This document shows, one piece after another, positions 17,548 through 34,910 of a stretch of DNA of 64,000 nucleotides. The position numbers and the translations under genes are program-made. Origin of the DNA: Tatumella ptyseos (GTDB lineage Bacteria > Pseudomonadota > Gammaproteobacteria > Enterobacterales > Enterobacteriaceae); NCBI RefSeq assembly GCF_030552895.1, contig NZ_CP130649.1, forward strand, positions 1,178,001-1,242,000, read 5' to 3'. Position 1 is the first letter of the stretch. Each line of letters begins with the position of its first letter. The notes beneath the pieces are model-generated. The model ran no database searches. It was not told the origin of the DNA and worked only from the letters and a program-made list of their open reading frames with translations.

Positions 17548-17551
17548 CTTT

Positions 17552-20532: not shown

Positions 20533-22005
20533 ATGCTAAGTTTTGATCCGGATAATCTTTCGTTTTGTACTGGGAACTATATTGATGGTCAGCATATCCC
20601 ATCAAACAATGATCAGATTCAAGTCCATCGCCCCTCAGATGGTAAACCCTATGCGCTAATCCCTGAAAGCGGTATTGAGGGGGTTACCCAGGCGGTAGAG
20701 ATTGCTGAAGAGAAACGAATGAGTAGTGGCTGGTCAAGCAGTTCACCCCGGCAGCGTGGAGCCATTTTGCGTCGATGGGCAGAGTTAATTGAAGAGGATG
20801 CCACTTATCTTGGACAACTCGAAGCTTTAGGGTCTACACGTCCCATTACTGATGTCATCAACCACGAGATTCCGTTTACTGCAGAGGCAATCCGTTTTTA
20901 CGCGGAATGTGCTGATAAGTATAGCGGTGATTTATTACCGACCCGAAAAGAGAGTCTAGGGATGTTGATCCCAGAGCCTTATGGTGTCGTCGGAGCAATT
21001 ACCCCCTGGAACTTTCCTCTATCAATGGCTTCATGGAAGTGTGGTCCAGCCTTGGCAGCGGGTAATGCGGTAGTGTTAAAACCTTCGGAACTCACTCCAT
21101 TTTCGACACTTCGTTTAGCGGAATTGGCGGTTAAAGCGGGCTTACCTGCGGGCGTACTCAACATCGTTCAGGGTAGTGGTCTTCACACTGGAAGCGAGTT
21201 AGTTAAACATCCGCTTATTCGTAAAGTTTCATTCACTGGATCGACGGTGACAGGGGCGCAAATTATGAGTGATGCGGGGTTCAATGGTATGAAACCCGTC
21301 ACTCTCGAGCTTGGTGGTAAAAGTCCGCAATTAGTTTTTAACGATGCCGGTAATCCCGTTGATATAGCACAACGTATTGCTCGCGGTTTCACCGCTAATG
21401 GCGGCCAAGCCTGTGTGGCAGGTACGCGGCTTATTGTTCAGCGCGCTATTGCCCCAGCGTTACTTGAGCAACTTATCCTTTTATGTCAGCAGTACCGACC
21501 AGGTTATACCTGGTTAGAAAATTCTCGTTATTCTCCCCTCATTGATAGTCGTCAGGGTAATAAGGTGCAACGCCTTATCCAGCAGTCATGCATTGAAGGT
21601 GGTGAAGTATTGGTAGGGGGTAAGCGATTCGAGCACACCGAAGGGGGCTGGTTTTGGCAGCCGACACTGCTTATCAATGTTGCAGAAGATAATTGTGCCG
21701 TACAGGAAGAAATTTTTGGCCCAGTACTCACTGTACAGTATTTCGATGACGAAGAAGAGGGGATTGCTCTCGCGCAACACGATATCTATGGCTTATGTGC
21801 TGGTGTTCATACGCAAAATTTAACGACCGCAATGCGCTCAATTCAATCTTTGAATACTGGAACAGTTTGGGTCAATCGCTATGGACGAAGCGGTGATTTC
21901 ATTATTCCAACAGGTGGTTTCATGGGTTCTGGGATTGGTAAAGATCTGGGACGTCAGGCTTTCCAGGCCTGCCAGCGTCAGAAAAGTGTACTCATCGATT
22001 TTTAA
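20533..22005 (+). CDS. NAD(P)+-dependent aldehyde dehydrogenase (PuuC-like)
   Basis: A 490-residue aldehyde dehydrogenase of normal length. It has the substrate-entry motif PWNFPLSMASWKCGPALAAG (about 158), cofactor-binding KPSELTPFST and FTGSTVTG, the general base in TLELGGKSP (about residue 258) and the catalytic cysteine in NGGQACVAGTR (about 292). PuuC-type enzymes oxidise aminoaldehydes made by flavin amine oxidases, which fits the neighbouring oxidase genes. It is the first gene of a tight co-directional run to 33380, starting 11 bases after a weak AAGGTGA ribosome site. Betaine aldehyde or other aliphatic aldehyde substrates are equally possible. Confidence 0.88.
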   Translation: MLSFDPDNLSFCTGNYIDGQHIPSNNDQIQVHRPSDGKPYALIPESGIEGVTQAVEIAEEKRMSSGWSSSSPRQRGAILRRWAELIEEDATYLGQLEALGSTRPITDVINHEIPFTAEAIRFYAECADKYSGDLLPTRKESLGMLIPEPYGVVGAITPWNFPLSMASWKCGPALAAGNAVVLKPSELTPFSTLRLAELAVKAGLPAGVLNIVQGSGLHTGSELVKHPLIRKVSFTGSTVTGAQIMSDAGFNGMKPVTLELGGKSPQLVFNDAGNPVDIAQRIARGFTANGGQACVAGTRLIVQRAIAPALLEQLILLCQQYRPGYTWLENSRYSPLIDSRQGNKVQRLIQQSCIEGGEVLVGGKRFEHTEGGWFWQPTLLINVAEDNCAVQEEIFGPVLTVQYFDDEEEGIALAQHDIYGLCAGVHTQNLTTAMRSIQSLNTGTVWVNRYGRSGDFIIPTGGFMGSGIGKDLGRQAFQACQRQKSVLIDF

Positions 22006-22033
22006 TTCCTTTCTTCTAAATGGAGACAACGCT

Positions 22034-22702
22034 ATGGCTGTGTTTACCCCCAAATTTATTACTTTTGACTGTTATGGGACGTTAATTAACTTTGATATGG
22101 CAGGCGCGGCACGCCGCTGTTATGCCGACCGTGTGGGTGCCGAGATAATGCCATTATTTATAACTGACTTTGCACGCTACCGACTCGATGAAGTTCTAGG
22201 ACCTTGGAAGCCCTACTACAACATTGTCGATGGAGCACTTCAACGAACCTGTCGTAAGTGGAAAGTTGAGTGGCAACCAGAGGACAGTGACTTTATTTAC
22301 GAGGATTGTAAAACGTGGACGGCACATCCAGATGTTCCTTCTGGTTTGAGCAGAATTGCGCCACATATTCCGTTGGTCCTACTTACCAATTCAATGGATG
22401 ACTTAATTACCCATCATGTACCCCGTTTAGGAGCGCCGATTCATATGACGATTACGGCAGAGGAAACTGGGGCGTACAAACCCGCGATGCGTGGTTTTGA
22501 AGTGATGCTTAATAAATTGGGTTGTGGCCCAGAAGATATTCTTCATGTTTCTTCAAGCTTACGATATGACTTGATGACAGCGCATGACCTCGGTATCACT
22601 CACAAGGTATTTGTTAATCGGGGGCATGAACCAGGGTGTCCTGAATATGGTTACACTGAAATCCATGATATCAGTGAGCTACCAAGTGTCGTGGGACTCT
22701 GA
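22034..22702 (+). CDS. HAD-superfamily hydrolase (haloacid-dehalogenase type II-like)
   Basis: A 222-residue HAD hydrolase. Motif I is FDCYGTLINFD with the nucleophile Asp and following Thr; motif II is LLTNSMDD; the lysine motif is GAYKPAMRGFE; motif III is SSSLRYDLMTAHDLG. In true L-2-haloacid dehalogenases the last motif reads SSNxxDxxGA. Here Asn is replaced and spacing differs by one, so phosphatase or other HAD chemistry is as likely as dehalogenation. The ATG at 22034 is preceded by TGGAGACAACGCT and gives the expected N-terminus; longer in-frame extensions overlap the aldehyde dehydrogenase gene. It sits 28 bp after that gene and 13 bp before the next. Confidence 0.8.
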   Translation: MAVFTPKFITFDCYGTLINFDMAGAARRCYADRVGAEIMPLFITDFARYRLDEVLGPWKPYYNIVDGALQRTCRKWKVEWQPEDSDFIYEDCKTWTAHPDVPSGLSRIAPHIPLVLLTNSMDDLITHHVPRLGAPIHMTITAEETGAYKPAMRGFEVMLNKLGCGPEDILHVSSSLRYDLMTAHDLGITHKVFVNRGHEPGCPEYGYTEIHDISELPSVVGL

Positions 22703-22715
22703 GGGGGAAGACGGC

Positions 22716-23993
22716 ATGAAAATGGAATCCTTTTGGCAGAGTACGGCTCCCATTTTTACCGGAGAGTGCCAACAGCCGCTTCCAGCTACGGCTGACGTCG
22801 TGATTATAGGTGGAGGCTTTAGTGGGATTTCGGCCGCTAGAAACTTAGCACGGCAAGGGCTGCAGGTTGTTGTGCTTGAAAGTGAAAAGATCATGAGCCA
22901 AGCCTCTGCACGTAATGGTGGGCATTGTAATACCGGTGTTGCACAAAACTTTGCCAGCCTTGTTGCGAGCAAAGGACTTGAGAAGGCAACGGAATTTTAC
23001 CGCGCTTATGACGATGCGGTCAGCTATGTTGCTTCAGTGATCGATGAGGAGAGAATCGATTGCGATTTTCGCTTATGTGGCAAGCTAAAACTAGCCAGTA
23101 AACCTGCACACCTCGCATCATTGCAAACTGCAGCGAAGCTAATGAGTGAAACCGTCGACCCAGAAGTGATGTTACTTTCTGCCACTGAGACACGAGATGA
23201 GGTCAGTAGCGATGCCTTTTACGGGGGGCTATTGCAAAAGCGTGGTGGCCAAATGCATATGGGAAAATTCGGTATCGGGTTGGCCCAATCAGCCGTCCGC
23301 GCCGGTGCAAAAATTTATCAACATCATGCTGTCACCGCGTTAACGCGATTATCTGGTTATCAGCATCGCATTGAGACAGCAAAAGGTTCCATCGTTGCTG
23401 AAAAAGTCTTATTAGCGACGGGCTGTTCGGATAAAGGGCCATTTCCTTGGTTTCAGCGTCGGATTGTGCCCGTTGGAAGTTTCATCATCACTACCGTGCC
23501 GTTACCTGCAACGCAACTAGCACAGCTCCTACCTCATGATCGAACCTATGTTACTTCAATGAATATAGGCAATTATTTCCGCACAACAGCAGATAACCGC
23601 TTAGTGTTCGGTGGCAGAGCACGTTTTTCAATGAGTAATCCGACACAAGATGCTCGAAGTGGCGAGGTGTTACGCGCCTCGTTGAAAACTCTCTTTCCAC
23701 AACTGGCTTCAATACCCATCGATTATTGCTGGGGAGGGTTAGTGGATATGAGCGCGGATCGATTACCGCATGCTGGCGAACAAAATGGCGTGTTCTTTAC
23801 GATGGGGTATAGCGGCCATGGTACTCAAATGTCGGTGTGGATGGGAAAAGTCATGGCAGACCTCATTGGGGAAAAGAAAGACAGTAATCCATGGGGAACG
23901 GAAAGCTGGCCAGCAGTACCCGGGTATTTTGGTAAGCCTTGGTTCTTACCTCTTACAGGGCTCTATTACAAAACCAAAGATCGTCTGTTCTGA
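22716..23993 (+). CDS. PuuB/OrdL-like FAD-dependent amine oxidoreductase
   Basis: A 425-residue DAO-family flavoenzyme. The FAD Rossmann motif is DVVIIGGGFSGISAARNLA (about 26-44) and the flavin loop ASARNGG. PuuB-type features are seen along the chain (ERIDCDF, RGGQMHMGKF, TADNRLVFGG, PIDYCWGGLVDMSADRLP, FTMGYSGHGTQ). PuuB oxidises gamma-glutamylputrescine to the aldehyde, and a related amine is the likely substrate here, feeding the upstream aldehyde dehydrogenase. The ATG at 22716 follows GAGGGGGAAG, a strong ribosome site, 13 bp after the HAD gene; ATG 22722 is an alternative. The protein has no signal peptide and should be cytoplasmic. Confidence 0.85.
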   Translation: MKMESFWQSTAPIFTGECQQPLPATADVVIIGGGFSGISAARNLARQGLQVVVLESEKIMSQASARNGGHCNTGVAQNFASLVASKGLEKATEFYRAYDDAVSYVASVIDEERIDCDFRLCGKLKLASKPAHLASLQTAAKLMSETVDPEVMLLSATETRDEVSSDAFYGGLLQKRGGQMHMGKFGIGLAQSAVRAGAKIYQHHAVTALTRLSGYQHRIETAKGSIVAEKVLLATGCSDKGPFPWFQRRIVPVGSFIITTVPLPATQLAQLLPHDRTYVTSMNIGNYFRTTADNRLVFGGRARFSMSNPTQDARSGEVLRASLKTLFPQLASIPIDYCWGGLVDMSADRLPHAGEQNGVFFTMGYSGHGTQMSVWMGKVMADLIGEKKDSNPWGTESWPAVPGYFGKPWFLPLTGLYYKTKDRLF

Positions 23994-24020
23994 TTAACAA
24001 ATCTATTTGGAGAGAATTGG

Positions 24021-25625
24021 ATGAAAAACGATGATGCGAAAAATCTTCCTAATGGTCAGCTAAGTACGTTATTGAAAAATGGAACTTTAACACGCCGCGA
24101 TATGTTGAAAATTTTATCGGCAGGTGCCGTAATGTCTTCGGGAATATTGAGCTTCCCTGATTTAGCAATAGCGGAAGGCGCTCCGGTAAAAGGAGGAAAG
24201 TTGAGGGCGGCGATGTCCAATTCCTCCGCAACGGATACACTCGATCCAGCTAAAGCGAATAACAGTGCAGATTATGCTCGTCAGTTTATGTTTTATAACG
24301 CACTGGTAGAAATCAATGATTCGTTAGAACCTACACCTGCTCTTGCTTCGTCTATTCACTCCGACGATGGTATTACTTGGCAGATAAAATTACGCCCTAA
24401 TGTCACTTTTCATAATGGTAAGAGCTTAACGGCGGAGGATGTCGTGTGGTCTCTTATGCGTCACAAAGATCCTAGTGTAGCCTCTAACGTATTCTCACTC
24501 GCCCAGCAGTTTTCAACCATGAAGGTGACAACGCCTCAGGAGCTATCTATCGTATTGACGGGGGCAAATTTCGACTTACCCCTCATGCTGGCGCTTCCCT
24601 CATTCCTCATTGTCCCGGCTAAAACTACCGATTTTAATAAAGGTATTGGTACTGGGCCATTCAGTTGCCAAACTTTTGTACCAAGTATGCACACGGTTGG
24701 CGTACGTAATTCGAATTATTGGAAACCAGGATTACCGCATTTGGATGAAATTGAATTATTAGGGGTAACCGACCAAGCCGCTAGAGTAAATGGGTTGATG
24801 TCAGGTGATTTACATATCTGTTCTGCAATCAGTCCCGGCTATGCCAAACAGATCACAAGTTCCGGCGGACAATTTAAGATCTTAGAAAGTAAGTCAGGAA
24901 TGTATACCAATTTAATTATACGTACAGACATCACGCCGGGTAAAAATCCTGATTTTGTTATGGCAATGAAATATTTACAGCCTCGTGAAATGATGGTGAA
25001 AACGGCTCTTCAAGGTTATGGAACGGTGGCTAATGACACCCCGGTTCCTCCATGGCATCCGTTATACAATGCAGACTTAAAACCTCGTCCCGTAGATATA
25101 GATAAAGCCCGTTTTCATTTGAAAAAGGCTGGCATGGCTGGGGCAAAAGTTGAAGTCATTACAACTACGACTATCGATGCGGCTATTGAAGGTGGACTCA
25201 TGATGCAAGGTCTCGCTCAGCAGGCTGGTCTGAACCTCAATATCCGGCGTGTCCCTTATGAAGGATATTGGTCGGCACACTGGATGAAAGATCCGATAGG
25301 GTATGGATCGATTAACCCCCGCCCAACTATCGATTTAACATTCTCACAATTTTATCTTTCGAGTTCTGCAAATAACGAATCAAAGTGGCACAACCCACAA
25401 TTCGACCAATTAGTTGTGGCTGCACGTGGAGAACAAGATTCTGCTAAGCGTAAACAGATGTATGGCGATATGCAAAAAATGATCTACGACGATTGTGGCA
25501 CGCTCATTCCAATGTTTGTCAGTTCTTTGGACGGTTACAGTAATAAAGTAAAAGGACTCAAATCGTGGCCAGCGGGCATGATGATGGGCTATCGCTTCAG
25601 TGAGAATATTTGGTTATCCGCTTAA
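24021..25625 (+). CDS. ABC transporter substrate-binding protein, SBP_bac_5 (peptide/opine type), Tat signal
   Basis: A 534-residue family-5 solute-binding protein (dipeptide, oligopeptide, nickel, opine). An N-terminal TRRDMLKILSAGAVMSSG stretch is a twin-arginine signal, so the protein may be exported folded. The mature body shows family motifs (DTLDPAKANN, LRPNVTFHNGKSLTAEDVVW, IGTGPF, and late KRKQMYGDMQKMIYDD). It captures the substrate in the periplasm for the permease/ATPase genes that follow with gaps of 21 bp, an overlap and 18 bp. The context of two amine oxidases and an amidohydrolase suggests a nitrogenous, perhaps acylated or condensed, substrate. Confidence 0.87.
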   Translation: MKNDDAKNLPNGQLSTLLKNGTLTRRDMLKILSAGAVMSSGILSFPDLAIAEGAPVKGGKLRAAMSNSSATDTLDPAKANNSADYARQFMFYNALVEINDSLEPTPALASSIHSDDGITWQIKLRPNVTFHNGKSLTAEDVVWSLMRHKDPSVASNVFSLAQQFSTMKVTTPQELSIVLTGANFDLPLMLALPSFLIVPAKTTDFNKGIGTGPFSCQTFVPSMHTVGVRNSNYWKPGLPHLDEIELLGVTDQAARVNGLMSGDLHICSAISPGYAKQITSSGGQFKILESKSGMYTNLIIRTDITPGKNPDFVMAMKYLQPREMMVKTALQGYGTVANDTPVPPWHPLYNADLKPRPVDIDKARFHLKKAGMAGAKVEVITTTTIDAAIEGGLMMQGLAQQAGLNLNIRRVPYEGYWSAHWMKDPIGYGSINPRPTIDLTFSQFYLSSSANNESKWHNPQFDQLVVAARGEQDSAKRKQMYGDMQKMIYDDCGTLIPMFVSSLDGYSNKVKGLKSWPAGMMMGYRFSENIWLSA

Positions 25626-25646
25626 TTTAACAGTGAGGAGTGCGCG

Positions 25647-26600
25647 ATGAATCACTTTATGTTGTTGCTGATTGTCCGACGTATCGGGGCGGGAATATTG
25701 ACACTGGTTATTGTTTCAATGGTGGTGTTTTTTATCACGAGTTTACTACCTGGCGATGCCGCTCAGATGATCCTCGGGCAGAACGCTACAGCGGAAACGG
25801 TTAATGCATTGCGCCACGAATTGGGCCTGGACCAACCGCTGCTGGTCCGGTACTACCATTGGTTTATTAACCTCATTACCGGTCATTTTGGTACCTCTTT
25901 CACGAGCCACATTCCCGTTGCTCAGTTAATCGCCTCACGCATTCCTGCAACCTTCGAATTAGCAGGTGTTACCACATTAGTTTCGGTCCCGCTTGCTTTA
26001 TTTATTGGCATTACGGCGGCAATGAAACGAGATACATGGTTAGATAAACTGTTGGTAACTTGCACCATGGCAACCGTTGCAGTACCAGAGTTTCTCATTG
26101 CAACGGTAGCGGTAGTGATTTTTGCTGTGCGTTTACACTGGGCTTCTGCGATGTTTTTCGGAAGTCCAAGTACCGATATTCTCAGTTTCATCAAGGCTTA
26201 TTCTCTACCGGTGCTAACGCTATGTTGCGTGCTAACGGCGCAGATGGCTCGAATGACACGCTCTGCCATTATTAGCCAACTCGATAGCGCATACGTGGAA
26301 ATGGCTATTTTAAAAGGTGTGTCACCAGTTCGAATCGTGGTGCGGCATGTATTACCCAATGCTGCGGGTGCAATCGCTAATGCCATTTCGCTAAGTCTAT
26401 CCTACCTATTCGGTGGGGTTATTATCATCGAAACTATCTTCAACTACCCAGGTCTTGCTAGTCAGCTGGTCGACGCAGTCAGCAATCGCGATCTTCCCGT
26501 TGTACAGCTTTGCGTAATGCTCTTCGCTGGATGCTATCTACTGCTCTTATTGTTGGCAGATATTATAACTATTGCGTTTAACCCGAAATGGAGAGGCTAA
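25647..26600 (+). CDS. ABC transporter permease (DppB/GsiC type)
   Basis: A 317-residue inner membrane permease with six predicted helices. It has an N-terminal DppB-like opening (RRIGAGILTLVIVSMVVFFI then SLLPGDAAQMILG) and the EAA loop that docks the ATPase (LKGVSPVRIVVRHVLPNA, about 222-240). GAGGAGTGCGCG precedes the ATG. It pairs with the downstream DppC-type permease, whose ATG overlaps this stop codon. Confidence 0.9.
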   Translation: MNHFMLLLIVRRIGAGILTLVIVSMVVFFITSLLPGDAAQMILGQNATAETVNALRHELGLDQPLLVRYYHWFINLITGHFGTSFTSHIPVAQLIASRIPATFELAGVTTLVSVPLALFIGITAAMKRDTWLDKLLVTCTMATVAVPEFLIATVAVVIFAVRLHWASAMFFGSPSTDILSFIKAYSLPVLTLCCVLTAQMARMTRSAIISQLDSAYVEMAILKGVSPVRIVVRHVLPNAAGAIANAISLSLSYLFGGVIIIETIFNYPGLASQLVDAVSNRDLPVVQLCVMLFAGCYLLLLLLADIITIAFNPKWRG

Positions 26601-27451
26601 TGAACTATTTACGTACTCCTTTGTGGTTCTTTTTTGCATTAACACCAGCTGGGCGGTTGGGGCTGGTTCTGACCTTATTTTGGATTTTTATCGCGCTTTT
26701 CGGTCAGTATCTCGCGCCTTATTCGATTAATGACATTGGTGGGGGGCCGCTATTTGGCGGGTTTTCTAAAGATTTTTGGTTAGGAACGGATTATCTGGGC
26801 AGAGATATGCTCACGCGTATTATGGCGGGTAGTCGCTATTCAATTGGCTTAGCGTTTACTGCAGCGATACTTGCCAGTGTTGTTGGAACCTTACTGGCGT
26901 TACTCGCGGCAGTGGCTGGACGTTGGATCGAAGAAGGTCTTGGCCGTCTCAACGATGCACTACTGGTACTACCAGGTAAAGTATTATCGCTAATGATTGT
27001 TGCAGTATTTGGTTCTTCGCTCACCATGTTAGTTATCACGGCGGTATTCACCTACTGGCCAGGGGCATATCGTATCGCGTTCGCTTTGGCAAGCCAGTTG
27101 CGTAACCAGGATTATATCAGGGCAGCCAAATTACGAGGTGAAAATCGCTTTTACCTCGCTATTCGAGAAATTTTACCGAACATGATTCATCCGATGTTAA
27201 CTGATTTTGGTTTGCGATTTGTTTATATCGTTCTGCTACTCAGTGGCCTAAGTTTTCTGGGGTTGGGTGTACAACCACCTCAAGCGGATTGGGGAAGTTT
27301 AGTTCGTGAGAATTTACAGGGCTTATTTGATGGATCACCCGCTATTTTGATGCCAGCCATCGCTATTGCAAGCCTAACCATCGGGGTCAATTTGTTCATT
27401 GATAGTCTCCAAAATATGAGCCCAGTCTCATTAATCCGGAGGGAAGCATGA
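26600..27451 (+). CDS. ABC transporter permease (DppC/GsiD type)
   Basis: A 283-residue permease with about six helices. It carries the DppC features FWLGTDYLGRDMLTRIMAGSR near the N-terminus and the EAA loop AAKLRGENRFYLAIREILPN. The ATG at 26600 overlaps the previous stop (TAATG) and has GGAGAGG just upstream; an in-frame ATG at 26588 would add four residues. The last four bases overlap the ATPase start. Confidence 0.9.
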   Translation: MNYLRTPLWFFFALTPAGRLGLVLTLFWIFIALFGQYLAPYSINDIGGGPLFGGFSKDFWLGTDYLGRDMLTRIMAGSRYSIGLAFTAAILASVVGTLLALLAAVAGRWIEEGLGRLNDALLVLPGKVLSLMIVAVFGSSLTMLVITAVFTYWPGAYRIAFALASQLRNQDYIRAAKLRGENRFYLAIREILPNMIHPMLTDFGLRFVYIVLLLSGLSFLGLGVQPPQADWGSLVRENLQGLFDGSPAILMPAIAIASLTIGVNLFIDSLQNMSPVSLIRREA

Positions 27452-29115
27452 GTACTCATTTCTCGGTAAAGCCATTAGTCGTGGTCGATAACCTGCAGGT
27501 TAAAGCTATCAACAGAGGTGTTGAAACTGTTTTAGTTAGTGATATCAGCTTTTCGGTTAAGAAAGGAGAAGTTCTTGCTCTGATTGGTGAATCTGGCTCA
27601 GGAAAAACAACGATAGCGATGGCATTAATGGGTTATGCACGCCATGGCTGCCATATCACAAAGGGAAATATTTCTGTCTCCGAACAGTCTGTACGAGAGA
27701 TGACGCCAGCACAGTTACGCCAGTATCGAGGTAACGATATTGCCTATATTGCACAGAGTGCGGCCTCATCCTTCAATCCGGGTATGAGAATCATGGATCA
27801 AGTCATAGAACCGGTAGTGATCCATAATGTACTGTCGCGGTCTGCAGCCCGAGAGAAAGCGATAACCTTATTTCGAGAGTTAGCATTACCTTCCCCCGAA
27901 ACGATTGGGGAGCGCTACCCGCATCAAGTTTCTGGTGGTCAATTGCAACGACTGATGACCGCAATGGCACTCATGGGCGACCCACAAGTGATCATTCTTG
28001 ACGAACCGACTACAGCTTTAGATGTAACAACCCAAGTTGAAGTATTGAAAGCATTCCGTCGTGTAATCTTCCAGCGTGGCATGACAGCTATTTATGTGAG
28101 TCATGACCTCGCGGTGGTTGCGCAAGTATCTGACCACATCATGGTTTTGCAGCAGGGGAAAGTCGTCGAGTACGGACAAACCTCTAAGCTTTTAACCAAT
28201 GCCCAAGAGACGTATACCCACCAATTAATGAATGCAGCGCAGCATAAACCGCGTATGACTAGCTGGATACGAAATAACGACGATAGACAACCTTTACTAG
28301 AGATTCGTGATTTAGCTGTTGGTTATGGTATACGCGACCGTAACCGGGTACCCAAAATCCGTGTTCTCGAGGAGATTCATCTACAGTTATGGCGTGGGCA
28401 GGCGATAGGGATTATAGGAGAGTCAGGATCAGGTAAGACGACACTTGCCCATGCGATTGCTGGCTTGAACCCAGCCTGGGCAGGGCATATTCTTTTTAAT
28501 CATCATTATATTTCCAGCCATCTCAATGAACGTCTTCCGGAAGAACTTCAACAGATCCAGTATGTTTTCCAAATGGCTGATACCGCACTGAATCCTGCTC
28601 ATACGGTGGGCGATATACTCAGTCGTCCTTTAAAACGTTTTCGCCAGTTAAAGGGCAAGGCGCTATCAAAAGAAATCGATGAATTATTAGCGCTCGTTAA
28701 GTTACCCCCTTCGCTGCAATACCGTAAGCCAGCCTCTTTATCCGGTGGGCAAAAACAAAGAGTTAACTTAGCGCGAGCTCTCGCCGCTCGTCCGGAAATC
28801 ATCATCTGCGATGAAGTCACCTCTGCACTAGATAGTGTTGTCGCGGCAGCTATCCTCGATTTAGTTTCAGAGCTACGCCGTAAATTGAATTTATCGGTCC
28901 TTTTTATAAGCCATGATATGCAAGCTATTCGTGCGGTCTGTGACGATATCGTAGTGATGAAGCAAGGGCGCATTATCACTCAGCTTGCCTGTGAAGATTA
29001 CGACAAGCCCTCCAGTAACCTTTACTTTGAACGCCTGAAGCGAGCTGTACCAGAATTACGTCTGGGCTGGCTTGATGAGCAACAGGAATTGTGTAAAGCA
29101 GAATCATATTATTAA
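27448..29115 (+). CDS. Fused double ABC ATPase (DppD-DppF-type)
   Basis: A 555-residue protein with two complete nucleotide-binding domains. The first has Walker A GESGSGKTT (about 48), the ABC signature VSGGQLQR and Walker B VIILDEPTTALD. The second has Walker A GESGSGKTT (about 328), signature LSGGQKQR and IIICDEVTSALD. Peptide transporters usually use two separate proteins (DppD and DppF); fused forms occur in GsiA and opine-type systems. The start overlaps the permease stop by four bases (ATGA). The second Walker B has Cys before the Asp-Glu pair but keeps the catalytic Glu. Confidence 0.92.
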   Translation: MSTHFSVKPLVVVDNLQVKAINRGVETVLVSDISFSVKKGEVLALIGESGSGKTTIAMALMGYARHGCHITKGNISVSEQSVREMTPAQLRQYRGNDIAYIAQSAASSFNPGMRIMDQVIEPVVIHNVLSRSAAREKAITLFRELALPSPETIGERYPHQVSGGQLQRLMTAMALMGDPQVIILDEPTTALDVTTQVEVLKAFRRVIFQRGMTAIYVSHDLAVVAQVSDHIMVLQQGKVVEYGQTSKLLTNAQETYTHQLMNAAQHKPRMTSWIRNNDDRQPLLEIRDLAVGYGIRDRNRVPKIRVLEEIHLQLWRGQAIGIIGESGSGKTTLAHAIAGLNPAWAGHILFNHHYISSHLNERLPEELQQIQYVFQMADTALNPAHTVGDILSRPLKRFRQLKGKALSKEIDELLALVKLPPSLQYRKPASLSGGQKQRVNLARALAARPEIIICDEVTSALDSVVAAAILDLVSELRRKLNLSVLFISHDMQAIRAVCDDIVVMKQGRIITQLACEDYDKPSSNLYFERLKRAVPELRLGWLDEQQELCKAESYY

Positions 29116-29133
29116 CAGAGGATCGGGATAGCT

Positions 29134-30465
29134 ATGCCCACACTTATTCAATATGTTCAGGATAGTTTATACCTGCCAGACTCGGCTGATGTAGTCATTC
29201 TCGGTGGGGGGATCGCGGGTGCTGCAGCGTGTTGGGAACTTGCACGCCAAGGGGTCAAGGTTGTTTTACTCGAAAAAGGGCTAGTTGGTGCTGAACAATC
29301 AAGTCGTAATTGGGGGTGGTGTCGTCAACAAAACCGTGATCAACGAGAGCTACCGTTAATTATCCACGCCTTACGACGTTGGCAGGAACTCAATGAAGAA
29401 ACGGGCGAGGAATTAGGTTTTCGCAAAACGGGCCTAGTCTATGCCACCTGTAATGAACAAGATATTGCTGCTTGGGATAGATGGAACAACATGGCAAAAA
29501 GCTATGATATTCGCAGTAATATATTGAATGCCGAGCAAGCGAAGTTCATGACCCCAGGCAGTACGACGCAGTGGAAAGGTGGGGTGCATTCTCCCGATGA
29601 TGGACATGCTGAGCCATCAATGGCAGCACCAGGATTAGTGCGTGCGGCGGTACGTAAGGGTGCACAAGTCTTTCAACAATGTGCGGTAAGGGGACTGGAT
29701 ATCAGTGCCGGAAAAGTTAGTGGTGTTATTACCGAACGAGGAATTATTAAAACTTCTAGGGTTATCTGTGCTGCGGGGGCATGGACCTCACTATTTTGCC
29801 GTCGACACGGTATCGATCTGCCTTTAGGAAATGTAATAGGTACAGCATTTCGGACTCGACCAATCAAACAAGCTATTGCCTTACCTTTTTATACGGAACG
29901 CTTTGCTGTCAGACCACAGATCGATGGTGGATATACCGTATCCGTTTCCGGCAGAGGTCGTCTAGAAGCGGGCTTCCAAGGTCTTAAATATAGTGGTCAG
30001 TTTTATTCAACTTTCAAAGCGCGCCGTAAAAATCTCACTATTGTGCCATCGCTGACCCCTTTTATTCGAGGACCTGAGACTTTGGCTTACTGGTCTTTCG
30101 ATAGTGTTTCTCCCTTTGAAAAAATGCGTATTCTTGACCCGGCTGCTGACCAAGAAATAGTACAAGAAGGTCTCGCCGCAATGGTTAATGAGTTTCCTGA
30201 ACTAAAGGGGGTTCAAGTGGCCCAGTCTTGGGGAGGCATGATCGATAGTACGCCGGACGCGATTCCAGTCATCAGTGAGGTAAACAAGTTACCTGGGCTA
30301 ATTCTATCGGCAGGTTATAGCGGTCACGGATTTGGTATCGGCCCAGGAGCGGGTCGCCTTGCAGCTGACTTAGCCATGAATTCAACACCTATTGTGGATC
30401 CAACACCCTATCGATATTCACGTTTTATCGACGGAAGTGACCTTGACGCACCTGGGATGATGTAA
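29134..30465 (+). CDS. FAD-dependent oxidoreductase (DadA/opine-oxidase-like)
   Basis: A 443-residue DAO-family flavoenzyme, different from the PuuB-like one at 22716. The FAD motif is VVILGGGIAGAAACWELA (about 21-38), followed by the SSRNWGWCRQQNRD segment characteristic of a subgroup found beside peptide/opine ABC transporters (annotated AgaE-like in agrobacterial opine clusters). The C-terminal flavin site is SAGYSGHGFGIGPGAGRL. It probably oxidises a secondary or N-substituted amine, releasing an imine that hydrolyses. It lies 18 bp after the ATPase gene. The exact substrate is not known. Confidence 0.83.
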   Translation: MPTLIQYVQDSLYLPDSADVVILGGGIAGAAACWELARQGVKVVLLEKGLVGAEQSSRNWGWCRQQNRDQRELPLIIHALRRWQELNEETGEELGFRKTGLVYATCNEQDIAAWDRWNNMAKSYDIRSNILNAEQAKFMTPGSTTQWKGGVHSPDDGHAEPSMAAPGLVRAAVRKGAQVFQQCAVRGLDISAGKVSGVITERGIIKTSRVICAAGAWTSLFCRRHGIDLPLGNVIGTAFRTRPIKQAIALPFYTERFAVRPQIDGGYTVSVSGRGRLEAGFQGLKYSGQFYSTFKARRKNLTIVPSLTPFIRGPETLAYWSFDSVSPFEKMRILDPAADQEIVQEGLAAMVNEFPELKGVQVAQSWGGMIDSTPDAIPVISEVNKLPGLILSAGYSGHGFGIGPGAGRLAADLAMNSTPIVDPTPYRYSRFIDGSDLDAPGMM

Positions 30466-30475
30466 GGAAAATTTA

Positions 30476-31321
30476 ATGAAGATTCAATTACGTGCTATGC
30501 ATCATAATGACCTGTCACAGGGTTTTCGATTAAGTCAGCAAGTCAACTGGCCTCATCGTTTAGACGATTGGGAACAAGCGCTATCATTGGGTGAAGGCAT
30601 TGTTGCGCAGACAGAAAGCGCTATCGTCGGTTGTGCAGTATTGTGGCCTTGGGGAGAACAGCGTAGTACCTTAGGATTAGTGATTGTCGACGCTGCTTAT
30701 CAAGGTCGAGGTATCGGCAAGTGTTTGATGGAAGGGTTGCTCGAAAAAGTCCCTGAAGGGAATATTCGATTGCATGCAACGGAGATGGGTAAAGGCTTAT
30801 ATGAAAAATACGGTTTTAAAAGACAATGCACTATTTCCCAGCATCAAACCGCACAACTTCCCGCCATTTCCGCACCAGAATTAGCCGCAAATGAATTAGT
30901 AAGACCCCTGCAAAAACATGAGTTAACTTCCTTAATTGAACATGATTTTCAGTCTCATGGGTTGTATCGCCCAATGTTATGGCAAAACCTAATTAACAGT
31001 GCTGATATCAGGGTATTAGAGAAAAGCGGAATAATTCGAGGTTATATGGCCATACGACAGTTTGGCCGTGGTTATGTTATTGGCCCCTTGTTAGCGGATG
31101 ATGAGTGTAGCGCTCAAAAACTCTTCTGTTATGGTGCTAGATCGCTTGCAGGTAAATTTGTACGGGTTGACACGTACAGTAATACCGACTTCGCTGACTG
31201 GTTAGTGCAGCAGGGACTGCCTTGCGTTGATGCCCCAATCATGATGATACGAGGAGAGCCTTGGATTCGGCCTGAAGGTGCGATGTCAGATTACAGTTTT
31301 ATGTCACAGGCGATGGGATAA
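30476..31321 (+). CDS. GNAT-family N-acetyltransferase with C-terminal second acetyltransferase-like domain
   Basis: A 281-residue protein. The N-terminal GNAT domain (1-135) has the acetyl-CoA motif YQGRGIGKCLMEGLL (about 79-93) and an EKYGFKRQC motif. The second half (about 145-275) resembles the C-terminal domain of YitH/HsdA-type two-domain GNATs (RGYMAIRQFGRGYVIGPLLADD). It presumably acetylates, or otherwise acylates, a small amine. In this operon it could protect a primary amine before oxidation, with the M20 gene two positions downstream removing the group. It starts 10 bp after the oxidase and its stop overlaps the next start (TAATG). Confidence 0.8.
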   Translation: MKIQLRAMHHNDLSQGFRLSQQVNWPHRLDDWEQALSLGEGIVAQTESAIVGCAVLWPWGEQRSTLGLVIVDAAYQGRGIGKCLMEGLLEKVPEGNIRLHATEMGKGLYEKYGFKRQCTISQHQTAQLPAISAPELAANELVRPLQKHELTSLIEHDFQSHGLYRPMLWQNLINSADIRVLEKSGIIRGYMAIRQFGRGYVIGPLLADDECSAQKLFCYGARSLAGKFVRVDTYSNTDFADWLVQQGLPCVDAPIMMIRGEPWIRPEGAMSDYSFMSQAMG

Positions 31322-32247
31322 TGAGTATCGTTTATCATTCCAGCGCAGAGCGTGGAAAGTTCTGGCAGAGGTGGCTGGCAGAAAATGCTCCAGACCTCGA
31401 CATGTATCTATGGCCTGAAACGGGAGACCCAACGAAAGTTCGCTATTATGTGGCCTGGGAAATCCCAGACGATCTTCTATCAAGATTTCCTCATCTAGAA
31501 GTAATATTTTCCGTCGGGGCAGGTGCTGATCAATTTAGTGCCGATCACGTCCCAGAAGGGGTCAGCGTGGTACGGATGATCGAGCCGGGATTGACCAATG
31601 ATATGGCAGCGTATGTGACCTTCTCAGTGATTAGTCTCCATCGGAAGATGCCTCGTTATCTCCAACAACAACAACGGAAGCTATGGTTAAAACATGATGC
31701 GGTTCCTGCCTCGCAATGTAAAGTAGGTATTCTTGGACTCGGTAACTTGGGGAGTGCTGCAGCTCGAGTTCTTACCCATTTAGGCTATCAATGTTCGGGA
31801 TGGAGTCGTAATCGAAAACATATTGATGGTGTCGCCAGTTATTTTGGTGATGATCAATTAGCCGCTTTTCTGGCACAGAGCGATATTCTGGTGTGCTTAT
31901 TACCCTTGACTCATCTTACACGTGGATTATTAAACCGCGATCTCTTCGCTCAATTACCCCGTGGGGCCGGACTTGTCCATGCTGGTCGGGGACAGCAATT
32001 AAATCATGAAGATTTAATTGAGGCATTGGAGAGCGGTCAGATTAGTCATGCGGTTATCGATGTGACTGATCCAGAACCGCTACCTGAAGAGCATCCTTTT
32101 TGGACTCACCCGTCATTGTGGTTGACCCCCCATATTGCTAGTGAGACCCATGCTGAGAGTTCGGTAAAAGTATTATTCGACAATATCCGTCGTCATGAAC
32201 AAGGTCGGTCAATGATTGGATTGATCGATATGAACAGGGGGTATTGA
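31321..32247 (+). CDS. D-2-hydroxyacid dehydrogenase (GhrA-like glyoxylate/hydroxypyruvate reductase family)
   Basis: A 308-residue NAD(P)H-dependent dehydrogenase close to GhrA in design. The catalytic-domain start has AVFSVGAG-like EVIFSVGAGADQF, the cofactor motif is VGILGLGNLGSAAARVL (about 137), the conserved Arg is in HAGRGQQLNHEDLIEAL and the catalytic His in LTPHIASETHAES. The C-terminus (IDMNRGY) resembles that of GhrA. It reduces 2-oxoacids such as glyoxylate or hydroxypyruvate, possibly a fragment released by the oxidases. Start and stop overlap both neighbours by one base, so it is translationally coupled. Confidence 0.85.
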   Translation: MSIVYHSSAERGKFWQRWLAENAPDLDMYLWPETGDPTKVRYYVAWEIPDDLLSRFPHLEVIFSVGAGADQFSADHVPEGVSVVRMIEPGLTNDMAAYVTFSVISLHRKMPRYLQQQQRKLWLKHDAVPASQCKVGILGLGNLGSAAARVLTHLGYQCSGWSRNRKHIDGVASYFGDDQLAAFLAQSDILVCLLPLTHLTRGLLNRDLFAQLPRGAGLVHAGRGQQLNHEDLIEALESGQISHAVIDVTDPEPLPEEHPFWTHPSLWLTPHIASETHAESSVKVLFDNIRRHEQGRSMIGLIDMNRGY

Positions 32248-33380
32248 TGAATATCCAAAAGTGGGTAGATATAAGGCATCATTTACACCAATACCCGGAA
32301 ACTGGTTTTAACGAACAACATACGGCCGCACTTATTGCTAAGTTGCTGACAGAGTTGGGATTAGAGGTGGAAACAGGTGTCGGCAATACCGGAGTGGTAG
32401 GGGTACTTCGGGGAAGATATCAAGGTAGCCGCATGATTGGTTTACGTGCCGATATCGATGCCTTGCCGATGAACGATGAAGGGAAAAGCCAATGGCGAAG
32501 TAGCCATATGGGAATTGCACATGCCTGTGGTCATGACGGGCATACCACGATGCTCTTAGCTGCCGCAGAATATCTTGCACAACACCCTAATTTCGAAGGT
32601 AGTGTCTGCTTTATTTTTCAACCAGCAGAAGAGGGCCTGGCCGGCGCAAAAGCGATGATCGATGACGGGTTATTTAGGCGTTATCCTTGCGACGCCGTGT
32701 ATGCCATTCATAACTGGCCTGAGCTGGAATTGGGTGAACTCCGTACCCGTATCGGCCCCATCATGGCAGCCGCAGATCGTTTTGATATAACGCTTGGTGG
32801 TGGAGGGGGGCATGCCGCTCAGCCTCACCTCTCAGCGGATACCTTATTGGCGACTAGCGAGCTGGTAGTGTCGTTGAATAGTCTGGTATCAAGAAAGCTC
32901 AACCCACATGAATCGGCATTATTAACCGTCACGCAAATACATGGTGGTTTGTCGCACAACATGATTCCAAGTGAAGCATCGATTACCGGTACAATTAGAA
33001 CCTTTACCTCCGAGGCGAGGGATATCCTAGAGCAACAAGTACGTTTAAAAACTGAGCATATTTGTGCAGCATATGGATTACAAGCCAAGATTCGTTACAA
33101 CCGTTACTACCCCGCTACCTGTAATTCAGAACGTGAAGTAACTCTTGCACTCAAGGCTGCACAGCAAGCAGGATTATCGGCGAAAGAGGCTGAGCATCCC
33201 GCACTGACCTCAGAAGACTTCTCTTTTATGTTACAAGAAAAGCCTGGCGCTTATGTCTGGTTGGGCTCAGGGCCAAGCTATCCCCTACATCATCCAAGTT
33301 ATGATTTTAATGATGAGGTCATCCCTTATGGCCTTCACTGGTTCTATGAAATTGTTCAATTGGAGCTTGGCAAAATTTAA
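32247..33380 (+). CDS. M20-family amidohydrolase (N-acyl-amino-acid/hippurate hydrolase type)
   Basis: A 377-residue M20D metallohydrolase. It has the metal motif ACGHDGHTTMLL (about 91), QPAEEGLAGAKAMI (about 125) and the lid/dimerisation domain after GGGGGHAAQPH; the late SEDFSFMLQ motif supplies the last ligand. The family removes acyl groups from N-acyl amino acids, IAA conjugates or hippurate. In this operon it could deprotect an acetylated intermediate. The ATG at 32247 overlaps the previous stop (TGATG). This is the last gene of the run; the aminotransferase follows after 120 bp. Confidence 0.88.
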   Translation: MNIQKWVDIRHHLHQYPETGFNEQHTAALIAKLLTELGLEVETGVGNTGVVGVLRGRYQGSRMIGLRADIDALPMNDEGKSQWRSSHMGIAHACGHDGHTTMLLAAAEYLAQHPNFEGSVCFIFQPAEEGLAGAKAMIDDGLFRRYPCDAVYAIHNWPELELGELRTRIGPIMAAADRFDITLGGGGGHAAQPHLSADTLLATSELVVSLNSLVSRKLNPHESALLTVTQIHGGLSHNMIPSEASITGTIRTFTSEARDILEQQVRLKTEHICAAYGLQAKIRYNRYYPATCNSEREVTLALKAAQQAGLSAKEAEHPALTSEDFSFMLQEKPGAYVWLGSGPSYPLHHPSYDFNDEVIPYGLHWFYEIVQLELGKI

Positions 33381-33500
33381 TGGTTTATCGCTATTAAATT
33401 AAGTGCTTTATGCCGAAATAACCCTGATTTATACGTTCGATAACAATGCTATCAAAGGTATAAATAATGACTTACTCTCTATGCCTAACAGGAGTTAATG

Positions 33501-34802
33501 ATGAGCGATATGGTAACGGCTACGAATAATGAGATTTGGCTTGACCGTCGAGAAAAAGGCGTTCCCCGTGGTGTCGTGACTGCCCATCCATTAGTAGTTG
33601 ATCATGCTAGTGGAAGTGAAGTATGGGATACCGATGGTAAACGCTATCTTGATTTTGTAGGAGGTATTGGGGTGTTAAATGTAGGGCATAATCACCCTAT
33701 GGTAACAGCGGCAGTGAAACGTCAGCTGTCTCAAGTCATGCATGTCTGTTTTCAGGTAGCAGCTTATCCGGTTTATATCAGTTTGGCTGAACGGCTCAAT
33801 CAATTAATGGATAAAAATACCGCTTTTCAGAGCGTGTTTTTTACTAGTGGAGCCGAAGCAGTTGAAAATGCAGTAAAAATTGCTCGTGGTTATACGAATC
33901 GCCCAGGTATTATTGCATTTGATGGCGCTTTTCACGGAAGAACATTACTTGGTACGACTTTAACGGGTATGAGCCAGCCTTATAAACAGAATTTCGGCCC
34001 TTTCGCAGGGGGGATTTATCGTCTACCTTTTCCGAACGAGTATCGTCAAATTACTGAGCAGTATTGCCTTCAGGCTCTTGACACCCTCTTCGCTGCAGAA
34101 GTATCTCCTGAACAAGTCGCTGCGATAATTATCGAGCCAGTCCAAGGCGATGGGGGGTTTTTACCAGCGCCAACGAGTTTTATGCAAGCATTACGGGAAA
34201 TTACTCATAAGCACGGTATTTTGTTAATTTGCGACGAAGTACAGACTGGATTTGGTCGGACTGGAAAAATGTTTGCTTTTGAACACTCAGATATCACCCC
34301 TGATTTAGTCACTGTTGCTAAGAGTCTTGGTGGTGGGTTACCCATTTCAGGTGTAGTAGGTAAAAAAGACATTATGAACGCTCCACTTCCCGGGGGGCTA
34401 GGTGGAACCTATGGTGGAAATGCACTAGCTTGCGCCGCAGCGTTAGCGGTATTGGATGTGATGGAACAAGAAGACTTGTTGTTGCGCAGCATCAAGTCCG
34501 GTAAAAAGCTGAATAAGCGGCTGCAACAATTAGCAGAAAAATACCCTTGTATTGGAATGGTGCGCGGTTTGGGCTTTATGCAAGCAGTTGAAATCATCGA
34601 TCCTGATACGGGTAAAGAAGATGCTGAGCTGACGGCAGCAATTTTAAAGGCTGCTTTTGAAAAAGGACTTCTTTTAATTAAATGTGGTCTTCATCGTAAT
34701 GTAATTCGTTTCCTTGCTCCGCTTGTTACCACTGATTCTCAGTTAGAAGAAGCGCTACACATCTTTGATATTGCCCTCGCCAAAGCTACAGGGCGTATAT
34801 AA
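33501..34802 (+). CDS. Class III aminotransferase (GabT/PuuE-like, 4-aminobutyrate transaminase)
   Basis: A 433-residue PLP enzyme. GabT-like features are the N-terminal RGVVTAHPLVVDHASGSEVW, PLP phosphate-binding TSGAEAVENAVKIARG, stacking aromatic in AFHGRT, the Asp in LICDEVQTGFGRTG, the Schiff-base lysine in TVAKSLGGGLPISG and the GGLGGTYGGN loop. It probably moves the amino group of an omega-amino acid such as GABA to 2-oxoglutarate, the logical last step after oxidase, aldehyde dehydrogenase and deacylase. The ATG at 33501 is six bases after AGGAG. It may have its own promoter in the 120-bp gap. Confidence 0.88.
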   Translation: MSDMVTATNNEIWLDRREKGVPRGVVTAHPLVVDHASGSEVWDTDGKRYLDFVGGIGVLNVGHNHPMVTAAVKRQLSQVMHVCFQVAAYPVYISLAERLNQLMDKNTAFQSVFFTSGAEAVENAVKIARGYTNRPGIIAFDGAFHGRTLLGTTLTGMSQPYKQNFGPFAGGIYRLPFPNEYRQITEQYCLQALDTLFAAEVSPEQVAAIIIEPVQGDGGFLPAPTSFMQALREITHKHGILLICDEVQTGFGRTGKMFAFEHSDITPDLVTVAKSLGGGLPISGVVGKKDIMNAPLPGGLGGTYGGNALACAAALAVLDVMEQEDLLLRSIKSGKKLNKRLQQLAEKYPCIGMVRGLGFMQAVEIIDPDTGKEDAELTAAILKAAFEKGLLLIKCGLHRNVIRFLAPLVTTDSQLEEALHIFDIALAKATGRI

Positions 34803-34819
34803 TCTTGATGGCTTTTCAA

Positions 34820-34871
34820 TGATATACCCTCTACTAACAGTATATTTTTACTATTAAGGCATGGTATATCA
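34820..34871. promoter_or_regulatory. Inverted repeat upstream of the Lrp-type regulator (candidate operator)
   Basis: TGATATACC (34820-34828) and GGTATATCA (34863-34871) are perfect nine-base inverted arms, 43 bp apart centre to centre. They end 39 bp before the regulator ATG. The placement suits autoregulation by an Lrp octamer-forming protein. This is an inference. Confidence 0.4.
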
Positions 34872-34910
34872 ATATAAATTGAAGACACCAAGGTTCCATC
34901 ACGAGGTATT

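What the first reader, a model, noticed from the sequence alone, without database searches (positions are those of the whole stretch)
20533..34802. Possible undescribed acyl-protected amine catabolic pathway (acylating analogue of the Puu pathway)
One tight operon plus an adjacent aminotransferase encodes a PuuB-like flavin amine oxidase, PuuC-like aldehyde dehydrogenase and GabT/PuuE-like aminotransferase. The glutamyl ligase PuuA and hydrolase PuuD are absent; a two-domain GNAT acetyltransferase and an M20 deacylase are in their place. A consistent scheme is: import by the peptide/opine ABC system, N-acylation, flavin oxidation to aldehyde, oxidation to acid, deacylation, transamination. The HAD hydrolase, second flavin oxidase and GhrA-like reductase suggest a larger substrate that yields a 2-oxoacid fragment as well.
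Basis: inference. Interest (0 to 1): 0.8.

Follow-up and report, generated by a model that had tools for sequence, protein, structure and literature searches.

The report
Predicted plant metal-chelator breakdown operon
This operon of a plant-type bacterium most likely imports and digests small plant metal chelators that contain a rare four-membered ring (nicotianamine or mugineic acids), which would give candidate genes for how soil bacteria destroy the compounds that crops use to take up iron.

Summary
The operon is real: 11 tightly spaced genes plus gabT and lrp at 20533-35435. PuuA and PuuD have no match in the window. The acyl-protected Puu reading is only partly supported. The cluster recurs widely in proteobacteria; its core is ALDH, HAD, oxidase DAO1, a family-5 ABC importer and the GNAT, while the M20 deacylase is accessory (13 of 20 Enterobacterales loci). 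The HAD's best solved match is L-azetidine-2-carboxylate (AZC) hydrolase. Some alphaproteobacterial versions carry a second HAD, 35-38% identical to that enzyme in the two measured. Of 9 loci with a closer AZC-hydrolase orthologue, 8 hold one or more of the same aminotransferase, Lrp, SSADH and tartrate dehydrogenase genes. Many relatives carry an opine-oxidase-like pair instead of DAO2; siderophore receptors flank the cluster in some. I read it as catabolism of an AZC-containing, opine-like metallophore, most likely nicotianamine/mugineic acids (0.6); the AZC module itself is likelier (0.8). Nothing was tested biochemically. Against: the window HAD is only 27% identical to AZC hydrolase, and this genome lacks SSADH and tartrate dehydrogenase over cut-off. 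The structure job never returned.

The parts
20533..22005 (+). Aldehyde dehydrogenase (ALDH), first gene of the operon
   Evidence: PF00171; 39% to E. coli PuuC; below the PuuC cut-off (377.6 vs 850)
22034..22702 (+). HAD type II hydrolase, azetidine-2-carboxylate-hydrolase-like
   Evidence: TIGR01428 151.2 vs 125.4 bits; best PDB match 3smv/8ywo/9v14, E 1.4e-20; alignment; 27.5% identity
22716..23993 (+). DAO1, flavin amine oxidase (PuuB/AmaA-like)
   Evidence: PF01266; AmaA model 171.3 of 600 bits; 31.6% to PuuB
24021..25625 (+). Family-5 solute-binding protein; AgaA, YliB (GsiB) and NikA are among its solved relatives
   Evidence: PF00496; PDB matches; no NCBIfam cut-off reached
25647..26600 (+). 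ABC permease B
   Evidence: PF00528 and PF19300
26588..27451 (+). ABC permease C
   Evidence: PF00528
27448..29115 (+). Fused double ABC ATPase (NikD/NikE, CntD/CntF type)
   Evidence: two PF00005 stretches; TIGR02770 352.9 and TIGR02769 350.6 bits over cut-off, CntD/CntF just under, (whole-protein scores of two domains, so inflated)
29134..30465 (+). DAO2, second flavin oxidase (L-amino acid deaminase / sarcosine oxidase type); accessory, an opine-oxidase-like pair stands in its place in many relatives
   Evidence: PF01266; PDB 5fjm L-amino acid deaminase E 7.7e-61; swap
30476..31321 (+). Two-domain GNAT acetyltransferase (PF13508-type + PF18014)
   Evidence: conserved columns
31321..32247 (+). 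GhrA-like D-2-hydroxyacid dehydrogenase
   Evidence: PF02826; GhrA model 195.4 of 403 bits
32244..33380 (+). M20 amidohydrolase (DoeB2/YxeP-like), accessory
   Evidence: TIGR01891 345.2 vs 153.75 and DoeB2 333.9 of 550 bits; PDB 1ysj (YxeP)
33498..34802 (+). GabT-type class III aminotransferase
   Evidence: TIGR00700 over cut-off
34911..35435 (+). Lrp/AsnC regulator; its relatives stand beside AZC hydrolase in other bacteria
   Evidence: PF13404/PF01037; 64% to the Lrp of the Leisingera AZC module; Lrp at 60% or more in 6 of 9 AZC-hydrolase loci

Best explanation
The operon is a catabolic unit for an opine-like metal chelator built on L-azetidine-2-carboxylate (AZC), most likely nicotianamine and/or mugineic acids. 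Proposed working: the family-5 ABC system imports the chelator; the HAD hydrolyses the strained ring at C2 (on free AZC, or on the ring still N-substituted), giving a 2-hydroxy-4-amino(butyrate) unit; the flavin oxidases DAO1 and DAO2 (or an opine-oxidase-like pair elsewhere) oxidise the secondary or alpha amines and split the C4 units apart; GhrA reduces a 2-oxo-acid fragment; the GabT-type enzyme transaminates 2-hydroxy-4-aminobutyrate to malate semialdehyde; ALDH/SSADH oxidises it to malate, and in part of the relatives a tartrate/D-malate dehydrogenase makes pyruvate. The GNAT acetylates a free amine (protection of the 2,4-diaminobutyrate end, or detoxification of AZC); M20 or ArgE removes acetyl where present; Lrp senses an intermediate. 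Shown by sequence: the families, the conservation, the genes shared with AZC modules, the flanking siderophore receptors in some lineages. Inferred: substrate, order of steps, stereochemistry, role of GNAT, GhrA and each oxidase.
For: (1) Best solved match of the HAD is AZC hydrolase, well above haloacid dehalogenase IVA (76.6 vs 45 bits). (2) Sinorhizobium, Rhizobium, Paracoccus denitrificans and Azospirillum versions hold a second HAD next to the binding-protein gene; the two measured are 37.9 and 35.4% identical to AZC hydrolase. (3) Closer AZC-hydrolase orthologues on plasmids lie beside the same genes: Leisingera has aminotransferase - AZC hydrolase - Lrp - SSADH - tartrate dehydrogenase, at 59, 64, 60 and 53% to the cluster genes. 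Nine loci with an orthologue at 52-61% were fetched (8 of the 15 best-listed records, one from the spread list): AT in 5, Lrp in 6, SSADH in 4, TTC in 2, at least one of these in 8; one (L201, Thioclava) also has the cluster's importer at 42-50%. (4) DAO2 and an OoxA-like enzyme are nearly exclusive: 21 and 37 of 80 loci, both in 1; the OoxA-like protein of L089 has Pyr_redox_2 and BFD [2Fe-2S] domains and a DAO partner. (5) TonB receptors lie near the cluster in 9 of 80 loci and in Chimaeribacter, where a ferrichrome-type binding protein and a receptor follow lrp; 3 of 3 receptors tested pass TIGR01783. HupE/UreJ homologues are in 6 of 80. (6) Many of the named holders are plant- or soil-associated (hosts, genera; ecology of genera recalled). 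[quoted passage not shown] P. fluorescens SBW25 lowered mugineic acids around roots, genes unproven (PMC7786132, passages). (8) Nicotianamine is three aminocarboxypropyl units, the last cyclised to AZC (PMC11794875, passage).
Against: The window HAD is only 27.5% identical to AZC hydrolase and nearly as close to 8hp5, named a haloacid dehalogenase (75.2 bits). Where two HADs coexist, the one of the window's type may have another substrate; the second HAD is in 0 of 20 Enterobacterales loci and not in the Paracoccus seriniphilus cluster. A 50% identical paralogue (L189, L121) stands with an APH kinase and a phospholyase-like enzyme, which fits a vicinal amino alcohol better than 2-hydroxy-4-aminobutyrate. 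This genome has no SSADH (best 434.6 of 646.35) or TTC (best 262.4 of 470.4) over cut-off; TTC is in 0 of 20 Enterobacterales loci and DAO2 in only 13 of 20 with no OoxA-like substitute seen. 14 of 80 SBP-anchored loci show no HAD. One of the nine AZC-hydrolase loci (L203) and a tenth with a 41% match (L199) hold none of AT, Lrp, SSADH, TTC. Most Enterobacterales loci show no receptor within their flanks, none was found in the window, and sphingomonads carry many TonB receptors (recalled). Binding protein and permeases reach no NCBIfam cut-off. Some holders are marine or clinical isolates. No ligand, binding or growth datum exists here.
Confidence: 0.6

Rival explanations
1. Acyl-protected amine (Puu-like) pathway: GNAT acylates a diamine, DAO1 and ALDH oxidise it, M20 deacylates, GabT transaminates the freed omega-amino acid.
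For: DAO1/ALDH/GabT are 31.6/39/49% identical to PuuB/PuuC/PuuE; GNAT is core; M20 resembles DoeB2 and others have ArgE, both deacetylases of N-acetyl-diamino acids.
Against: The deacylase is missing in 7 of 20 Enterobacterales loci that keep HAD, DAO1, importer and GNAT; the scheme gives no role to the conserved HAD, the second oxidase or GhrA, and does not explain TTC or the siderophore receptors.
Confidence: 0.12
2. Catabolism of another opine-type or amino-carboxylate conjugate without an azetidine ring, the HAD acting as a true 2-haloacid dehalogenase or another hydrolase.
For: HAD passes the general haloacid dehalogenase type II model; binding protein resembles AgaA, YliB, NikA; OoxA/OoxB-like pair; paralogous HAD with kinase and phospholyase.
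Against: Recurrent AT/Lrp/SSADH/TTC beside AZC hydrolase orthologues and a second, closer AZC-hydrolase-like HAD in some alphaproteobacterial clusters.
Confidence: 0.2
3. Use or detoxification of free AZC only, with the oxidases and importer serving other nutrients.
For: AZC-module genes are present; an acetyltransferase (NgnA/Mpr1) helps to detoxify AZC in fungi (PMC8016842, passages).
Against: In the nine AZC-hydrolase loci looked at, DAO1 and the GNAT matched in none, the importer in 1, GhrA only at 30% in 1 and DAO2 only at 25% in 1 (flanks of about 9-10 kb), whereas 23 of 25 HAD-anchored loci of the window's type keep DAO1, importer and GNAT.
Confidence: 0.08

Closest known systems
L-azetidine-2-carboxylate catabolism of Pseudomonas sp. 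A2C and AzhA/NgnA of Aspergillus nidulans (PMC8016842, passages; Gross et al. 2008 seen only as a citation)
   Same: HAD-type hydrolase, GABA-type handling of a 2-hydroxy-4-aminobutyrate product, an acetyltransferase as helper
   Different: The known systems handle free AZC; this cluster adds a peptide/opine-type importer, two flavin amine oxidases, ALDH, GhrA and a deacylase; the window HAD is a distant paralogue; the GNAT was not compared with Mpr1/NgnA
Puu pathway of E. coli (puuABCDE)
   Same: PuuB-, PuuC- and PuuE-like enzymes
   Different: No PuuA or PuuD match; HAD, second oxidase, GhrA and ABC importer instead
Opine catabolism (opine oxidase plus binding-protein importers; recalled)
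   Same: Flavin oxidation of an amine bond, AgaA-like binding protein, OoxA/OoxB-like pair in many relatives
   Different: AZC-type HAD and GABA-type end
Ectoine degradation (Doe)
   Same: DoeB2-like M20, class III aminotransferase, ALDH
   Different: M20 misses the DoeB2 cut-off; no ectoine hydrolase among the genes seen

Membership tests
AZC catabolic module | AZC hydrolase orthologue | tested here: inconclusive
   Window HAD's best PDB match is AZC hydrolase but at 27.5% identity; the 15 best plasmid records are at 54-61%
AZC catabolic module | Lrp/AsnC gene of the module | tested here: met
   64% identity to the Lrp of the Leisingera module; Lrp in 6 of 9 such loci
AZC catabolic module | Omega-aminotransferase | tested here: met
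   GabT-type in the window; the module-type AT2, 59% to Leisingera AT, is in 24 of 80 relatives, none of them Enterobacterales
AZC catabolic module | SSADH and tartrate/D-malate dehydrogenase | tested here: not met
   Neither in the window's cluster, none over cut-off in the genome; SSADH in 38 and TTC in 16 of 80 relatives
Nicotianamine/mugineic acid catabolism (proposed) | Activity on, binding of, or growth on the chelator | not testable with these tools
   no biochemical data; no genes for it seen in six paper searches (only 15 of 223 and 15 of 51 papers listed)
Metallophore uptake | Siderophore receptor beside the cluster | tested here: inconclusive
   no receptor homologue found in the window; present in 9 of 80 relatives and in Chimaeribacter
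Puu pathway | PuuA glutamate-putrescine ligase | tested here: not met
   no match in the window; single Gln-synt_C match in the genome
Puu pathway | PuuD hydrolase | tested here: not met
   no match in the window; six partial, weak PF07722 matches in the genome
Ectoine degradation | DoeB2 deacetylase | tested here: not met
   333.9 bits against a cut-off of 550
Opine oxidase systems | OoxA/OoxB-type heteromeric oxidase | tested here: not met
   no second flavoprotein of that type among the window's operon genes; OoxA-like in 37 of 80 relatives; the name rests on domains of L089 and on recall

The most novel reading that the evidence does not exclude
This is a widespread, partly plasmid-borne bacterial pathway that eats the plant iron, zinc and nickel chelators nicotianamine and mugineic acid as nutrients, opening the azetidine ring with a dedicated HAD hydrolase; in some lineages it is coupled to siderophore receptors, so that the metal and the chelator are both used.
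Probability: 0.55. Interest if true: 0.86.

Novelty: new variant of a known kind. Interest (0 to 1): 0.72.

Why it matters
Soil microbes are reported to destroy mugineic acids, which limits phytosiderophore fertilisers and grass iron nutrition, but the bacterial genes proposed in the one study read here (PMC7786132, passages) were inferred from expression only. This cluster gives a concrete, testable gene set, a marker for 'chelator-eating' bacteria in rhizosphere metagenomes, and a possible reason why the proline analogue of deoxymugineic acid lasts longer in soil.

Tried and rejected
Hydroxycinnamoyl-putrescine as substrate (my first idea): dropped, it leaves the HAD, GhrA and TTC unexplained; two paper searches found nothing. 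Ectoine-type pathway: M20 below the DoeB2 cut-off. Nickel import proper: only the fused ATPase passes NikD/NikE cut-offs, and its two domains inflate the score; binding protein and permeases fail. GNAT as a marker on its own: the genome has a second GNAT at C1:524522 without cluster genes around it. Structure comparison of the HAD: the job was accepted but had not finished when last asked; no structural claim is made and no fold search was run.

Counting caveats: identity thresholds were chosen by me (printed); loci are cut at 10 kb flanks and 16 of 80 are shorter than 21.4 kb, so absences may be overcounted. An ORF-based count and a tblastn count differ for SSADH (41 vs 38), Lrp (44 vs 43), class III AT (47 vs 44) and OoxA (33 vs 37). 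The 80 loci are the best of 584 confirmed candidates, itself a capped list, so they favour close relatives. HAD-anchored and SBP-anchored sets overlap (for example G606:C53 and the contig of L058 have equal length). A weak receptor match in L120 (22.9% over 240 residues) was left out of the nine. The AZC-hydrolase loci were picked by me from two listings, 10 in all; the tenth (L199, 41%) is reported apart.
Full report
Observation. The window holds the operon as described. ORFs, Pfam and NCBIfam results give, in order on the + strand: ALDH, HAD type II, DAO1, family-5 binding protein, two permeases, a fused double ATPase, DAO2, a two-domain GNAT, a GhrA-like dehydrogenase, an M20 amidohydrolase, then gabT and an Lrp gene. 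Gaps from ALDH to M20 are -13 to +28 bp. The starts of the HAD and DAO1 genes should be moved to 22034 and 22716. Against E. coli K-12, ALDH, DAO1 and GabT are 39, 31.6 and 49% identical to PuuC, PuuB and PuuE; PuuA and PuuD give no match in the window. The genome has one Gln-synt_C match.

Organism. The genome is 3.2 Mb. The closest named relatives in the scan are Tatumella saanichensis and Tatumella sp. JGM91 (cluster proteins 66-90% identical); no tool names the genus of the window.

Conservation. Klebsiella pneumoniae pHNLC3 and Serratia marcescens pQE31 carry the same gene order plus an SSADH gene upstream. A scan with an alignment of nine binding proteins gave 80 loci from Tatumella, Pantoea, Erwinia, Klebsiella, Chimaeribacter, Hafnia, the Pseudomonas syringae group, Burkholderia and relatives, Herbaspirillum, Sphingobium, Azospirillum, Nitrospirillum, Methylobacterium and others. 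By tblastn the HAD is in 66 of 80, DAO1 in 73, the ATPase in 74, a GNAT of this type in 68, GhrA in 47, Lrp in 43, a class III aminotransferase in 44, SSADH in 38, TTC in 16, a deacylase in 28. In the 20 Enterobacterales loci: HAD, DAO1, ABC genes, ALDH and GNAT 20 of 20; GhrA, GabT and Lrp 19 each; SSADH 15; DAO2 13; M20 13; TTC 0; second HAD 0.

Independent anchor. A HAD profile found 24 of 392 genomes of the family sample and 2 of 369 of a class sample (own genome included in both) at E <= 1e-40. All 25 HAD places in other genomes were looked at; 23 have ALDH, DAO1, the ABC importer and GNAT (identity >= 40%). The exceptions are L189 (HAD with an APH kinase, a phospholyase-like class III enzyme and Lrp; same module in L121) and L190 (GNAT at 32%, ALDH, DAO2, HAD, GhrA, Lrp, no importer matched).

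What the HAD is. Its best solved relative is L-azetidine-2-carboxylate hydrolase (3smv, 8ywo, 9v14; E 1.4e-20, 76.6 bits), followed by 8hp5 (75.2 bits, named haloacid dehalogenase) and, far lower, DehIVa (45 bits). In the alignment the nucleophile Asp, the Thr, the Lys and the final Asp line up; two positions that I recall as Tyr and Asn in classical L-2-haloacid dehalogenases are Phe and Leu/Phe in the cluster HADs, as in AZC hydrolase and 8hp5 (recall, not a tool result). At 27.5% identity this is a lead, not an assignment.

The AZC module. A search with AZC hydrolase over plasmids found 447 records. Rhizobial hits at 35-38% include the second HAD of this cluster: in Rhizobium tumorigenes it is at 74020-74634, next to the binding protein at 74852; likewise in Sinorhizobium meliloti ABS7 and Alloyangia pacifica T6124. 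Direct comparison gives 37.9% (Sinorhizobium) and 35.4% (Paracoccus denitrificans); the Paracoccus seriniphilus cluster lacks this second HAD. Closer orthologues often sit in small operons. Leisingera M527: class III aminotransferase, AZC hydrolase, Lrp, SSADH, tartrate dehydrogenase; against cluster proteins these are 59% (Sinorhizobium-cluster AT2; next best in that set 29%), 64% (window Lrp), 60% (Klebsiella-cluster SSADH) and 53% (Sinorhizobium-cluster TTC). Burkholderia ambifaria has gabP a few kb upstream. Over 9 loci with orthologues at 52-61%: AT in 5, Lrp in 6, SSADH in 4, TTC in 2, at least one of these in 8; the Thioclava locus also has the cluster's importer at 42-50%. L203 has none, nor has a tenth locus with a 41% match (L199). 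The published AZC route goes through 2-hydroxy-4-aminobutyrate and transamination (PMC8016842, passages), which fits AT, SSADH and a D-malate-type dehydrogenase. That tartrate dehydrogenases act on D-malate is recalled.

The other half. The importer, two flavin oxidases and GhrA should not be needed for free AZC. DAO1 resembles AmaA/PuuB; DAO2's best solved match is L-amino acid deaminase. In 37 of 80 loci an OoxA-like flavoprotein, with a BFD [2Fe-2S] domain in the one tested, and a DAO partner are found; both it and DAO2 occur together in 1. Opine oxidases have this make-up (recalled). So the substrate should have an alpha- or secondary-amine bond to oxidise as well as an azetidine ring. In 7 of 20 Enterobacterales loci neither DAO2 nor the substitute is seen, so one oxidase may do, or the other lies elsewhere. 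Nicotianamine is made of three aminocarboxypropyl units, the last cyclised to AZC (PMC11794875, passage).

Metal link. TonB receptors lie near the cluster in 9 of 80 loci (five named Sphingobium, one related unnamed MAG, Nitrospirillum, Azospirillum and a Pseudomonadota MAG), HupE/UreJ homologues in 6 of 80. In Chimaeribacter a ferrichrome-type binding protein and a TonB receptor follow lrp directly (L170), and on a C. arupi plasmid they follow the GNAT. Three receptors tested pass TIGR01783. Sphingomonads have many receptors (recalled), so those six are weak; the recurrence in separate groups is the stronger point. No receptor was found in the window.

GNAT is core; the M20 deacylase is not (13 of 20; 16 of 25). 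ArgE is in 9 of 80; the three ArgE-type proteins tested (L036, L037, L112) pass the acetylornithine deacetylase cut-off TIGR01892. An N-acetyl-diamino-acid intermediate is therefore plausible as a side branch, for instance at the 2,4-diaminobutyrate end of nicotianamine, but acylation-deacylation is not the backbone.

Gaps in this genome. No SSADH or TTC reaches cut-off; the operon's own ALDH or another of the 12 ALDH-type matches would have to oxidise the semialdehyde. This is the weakest point for the window itself.

Literature. Ten searches of the held library were made. Six asked about nicotianamine or phytosiderophores; in the listings seen (15 of 223 papers, 15 of 51, the rest complete) no title or abstract described genes for their bacterial catabolism. 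Subscription journals are mostly not held, so this is not proof of novelty. Passages read: PMC8016842 (outline), PMC7786132, PMC7946895, PMC11794875, PMC12184663, PMC8079746. No paper was read whole.

Verdict. Observation confirmed; interpretation partly supported; the best reading is an AZC-containing metallophore pathway, confidence 0.6, all functional steps untested.

Noticed in passing
L189:12232-15874 and L121:2074-5718: A paralogous HAD (50-55% to the window HAD) stands with an APH-family kinase, a phospholyase-like class III PLP enzyme (5g4i type) and an Lrp gene: a separate module that hints at a phosphorylated hydroxy-amine intermediate.
   Followed up: partly
L025:10520-11362 (G000:C1 about 524520): A second two-domain GNAT (39% to the operon's) stands alone between a SecC-motif protein and rpoD/dnaG (names by eye); GNATs at 38-39% to the operon's occur in four same-genus genomes, without cluster genes near them.
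   Followed up: partly
L026 (G002:C33:11442-14185): A same-genus genome has only GNAT, a shortened GhrA match and part of DAO2 at a contig edge, and no HAD at E<=1e-40: the cluster looks lost or reduced there.
   Followed up: partly
L020, and 16 Klebsiella plasmid records listed: Sixteen Klebsiella plasmid records from vegetables, sewage and patients hold the GNAT at 45%; the whole cluster was checked in pHNLC3 only, which is typed conjugative.
   Followed up: no
window 14564-18301: Cytochrome c / GMC oxidoreductase / small subunit set of gluconate-dehydrogenase type (by eye) upstream of the operon; a similar GMC pair lies about 6 kb from a GNAT in L028.
   Followed up: no
window 48001-60000: G+C rises to 0.52-0.56 with AT skew up to 0.164, against 0.43-0.47 in the first 48 kb.
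   Followed up: no
L193:11983-19969: An Agrobacterium plasmid pairs an AZC-hydrolase-like HAD with a flavin oxidase, another ABC importer, a GMC oxidoreductase and an ALDH: possibly a related pathway with another importer.
   Followed up: no
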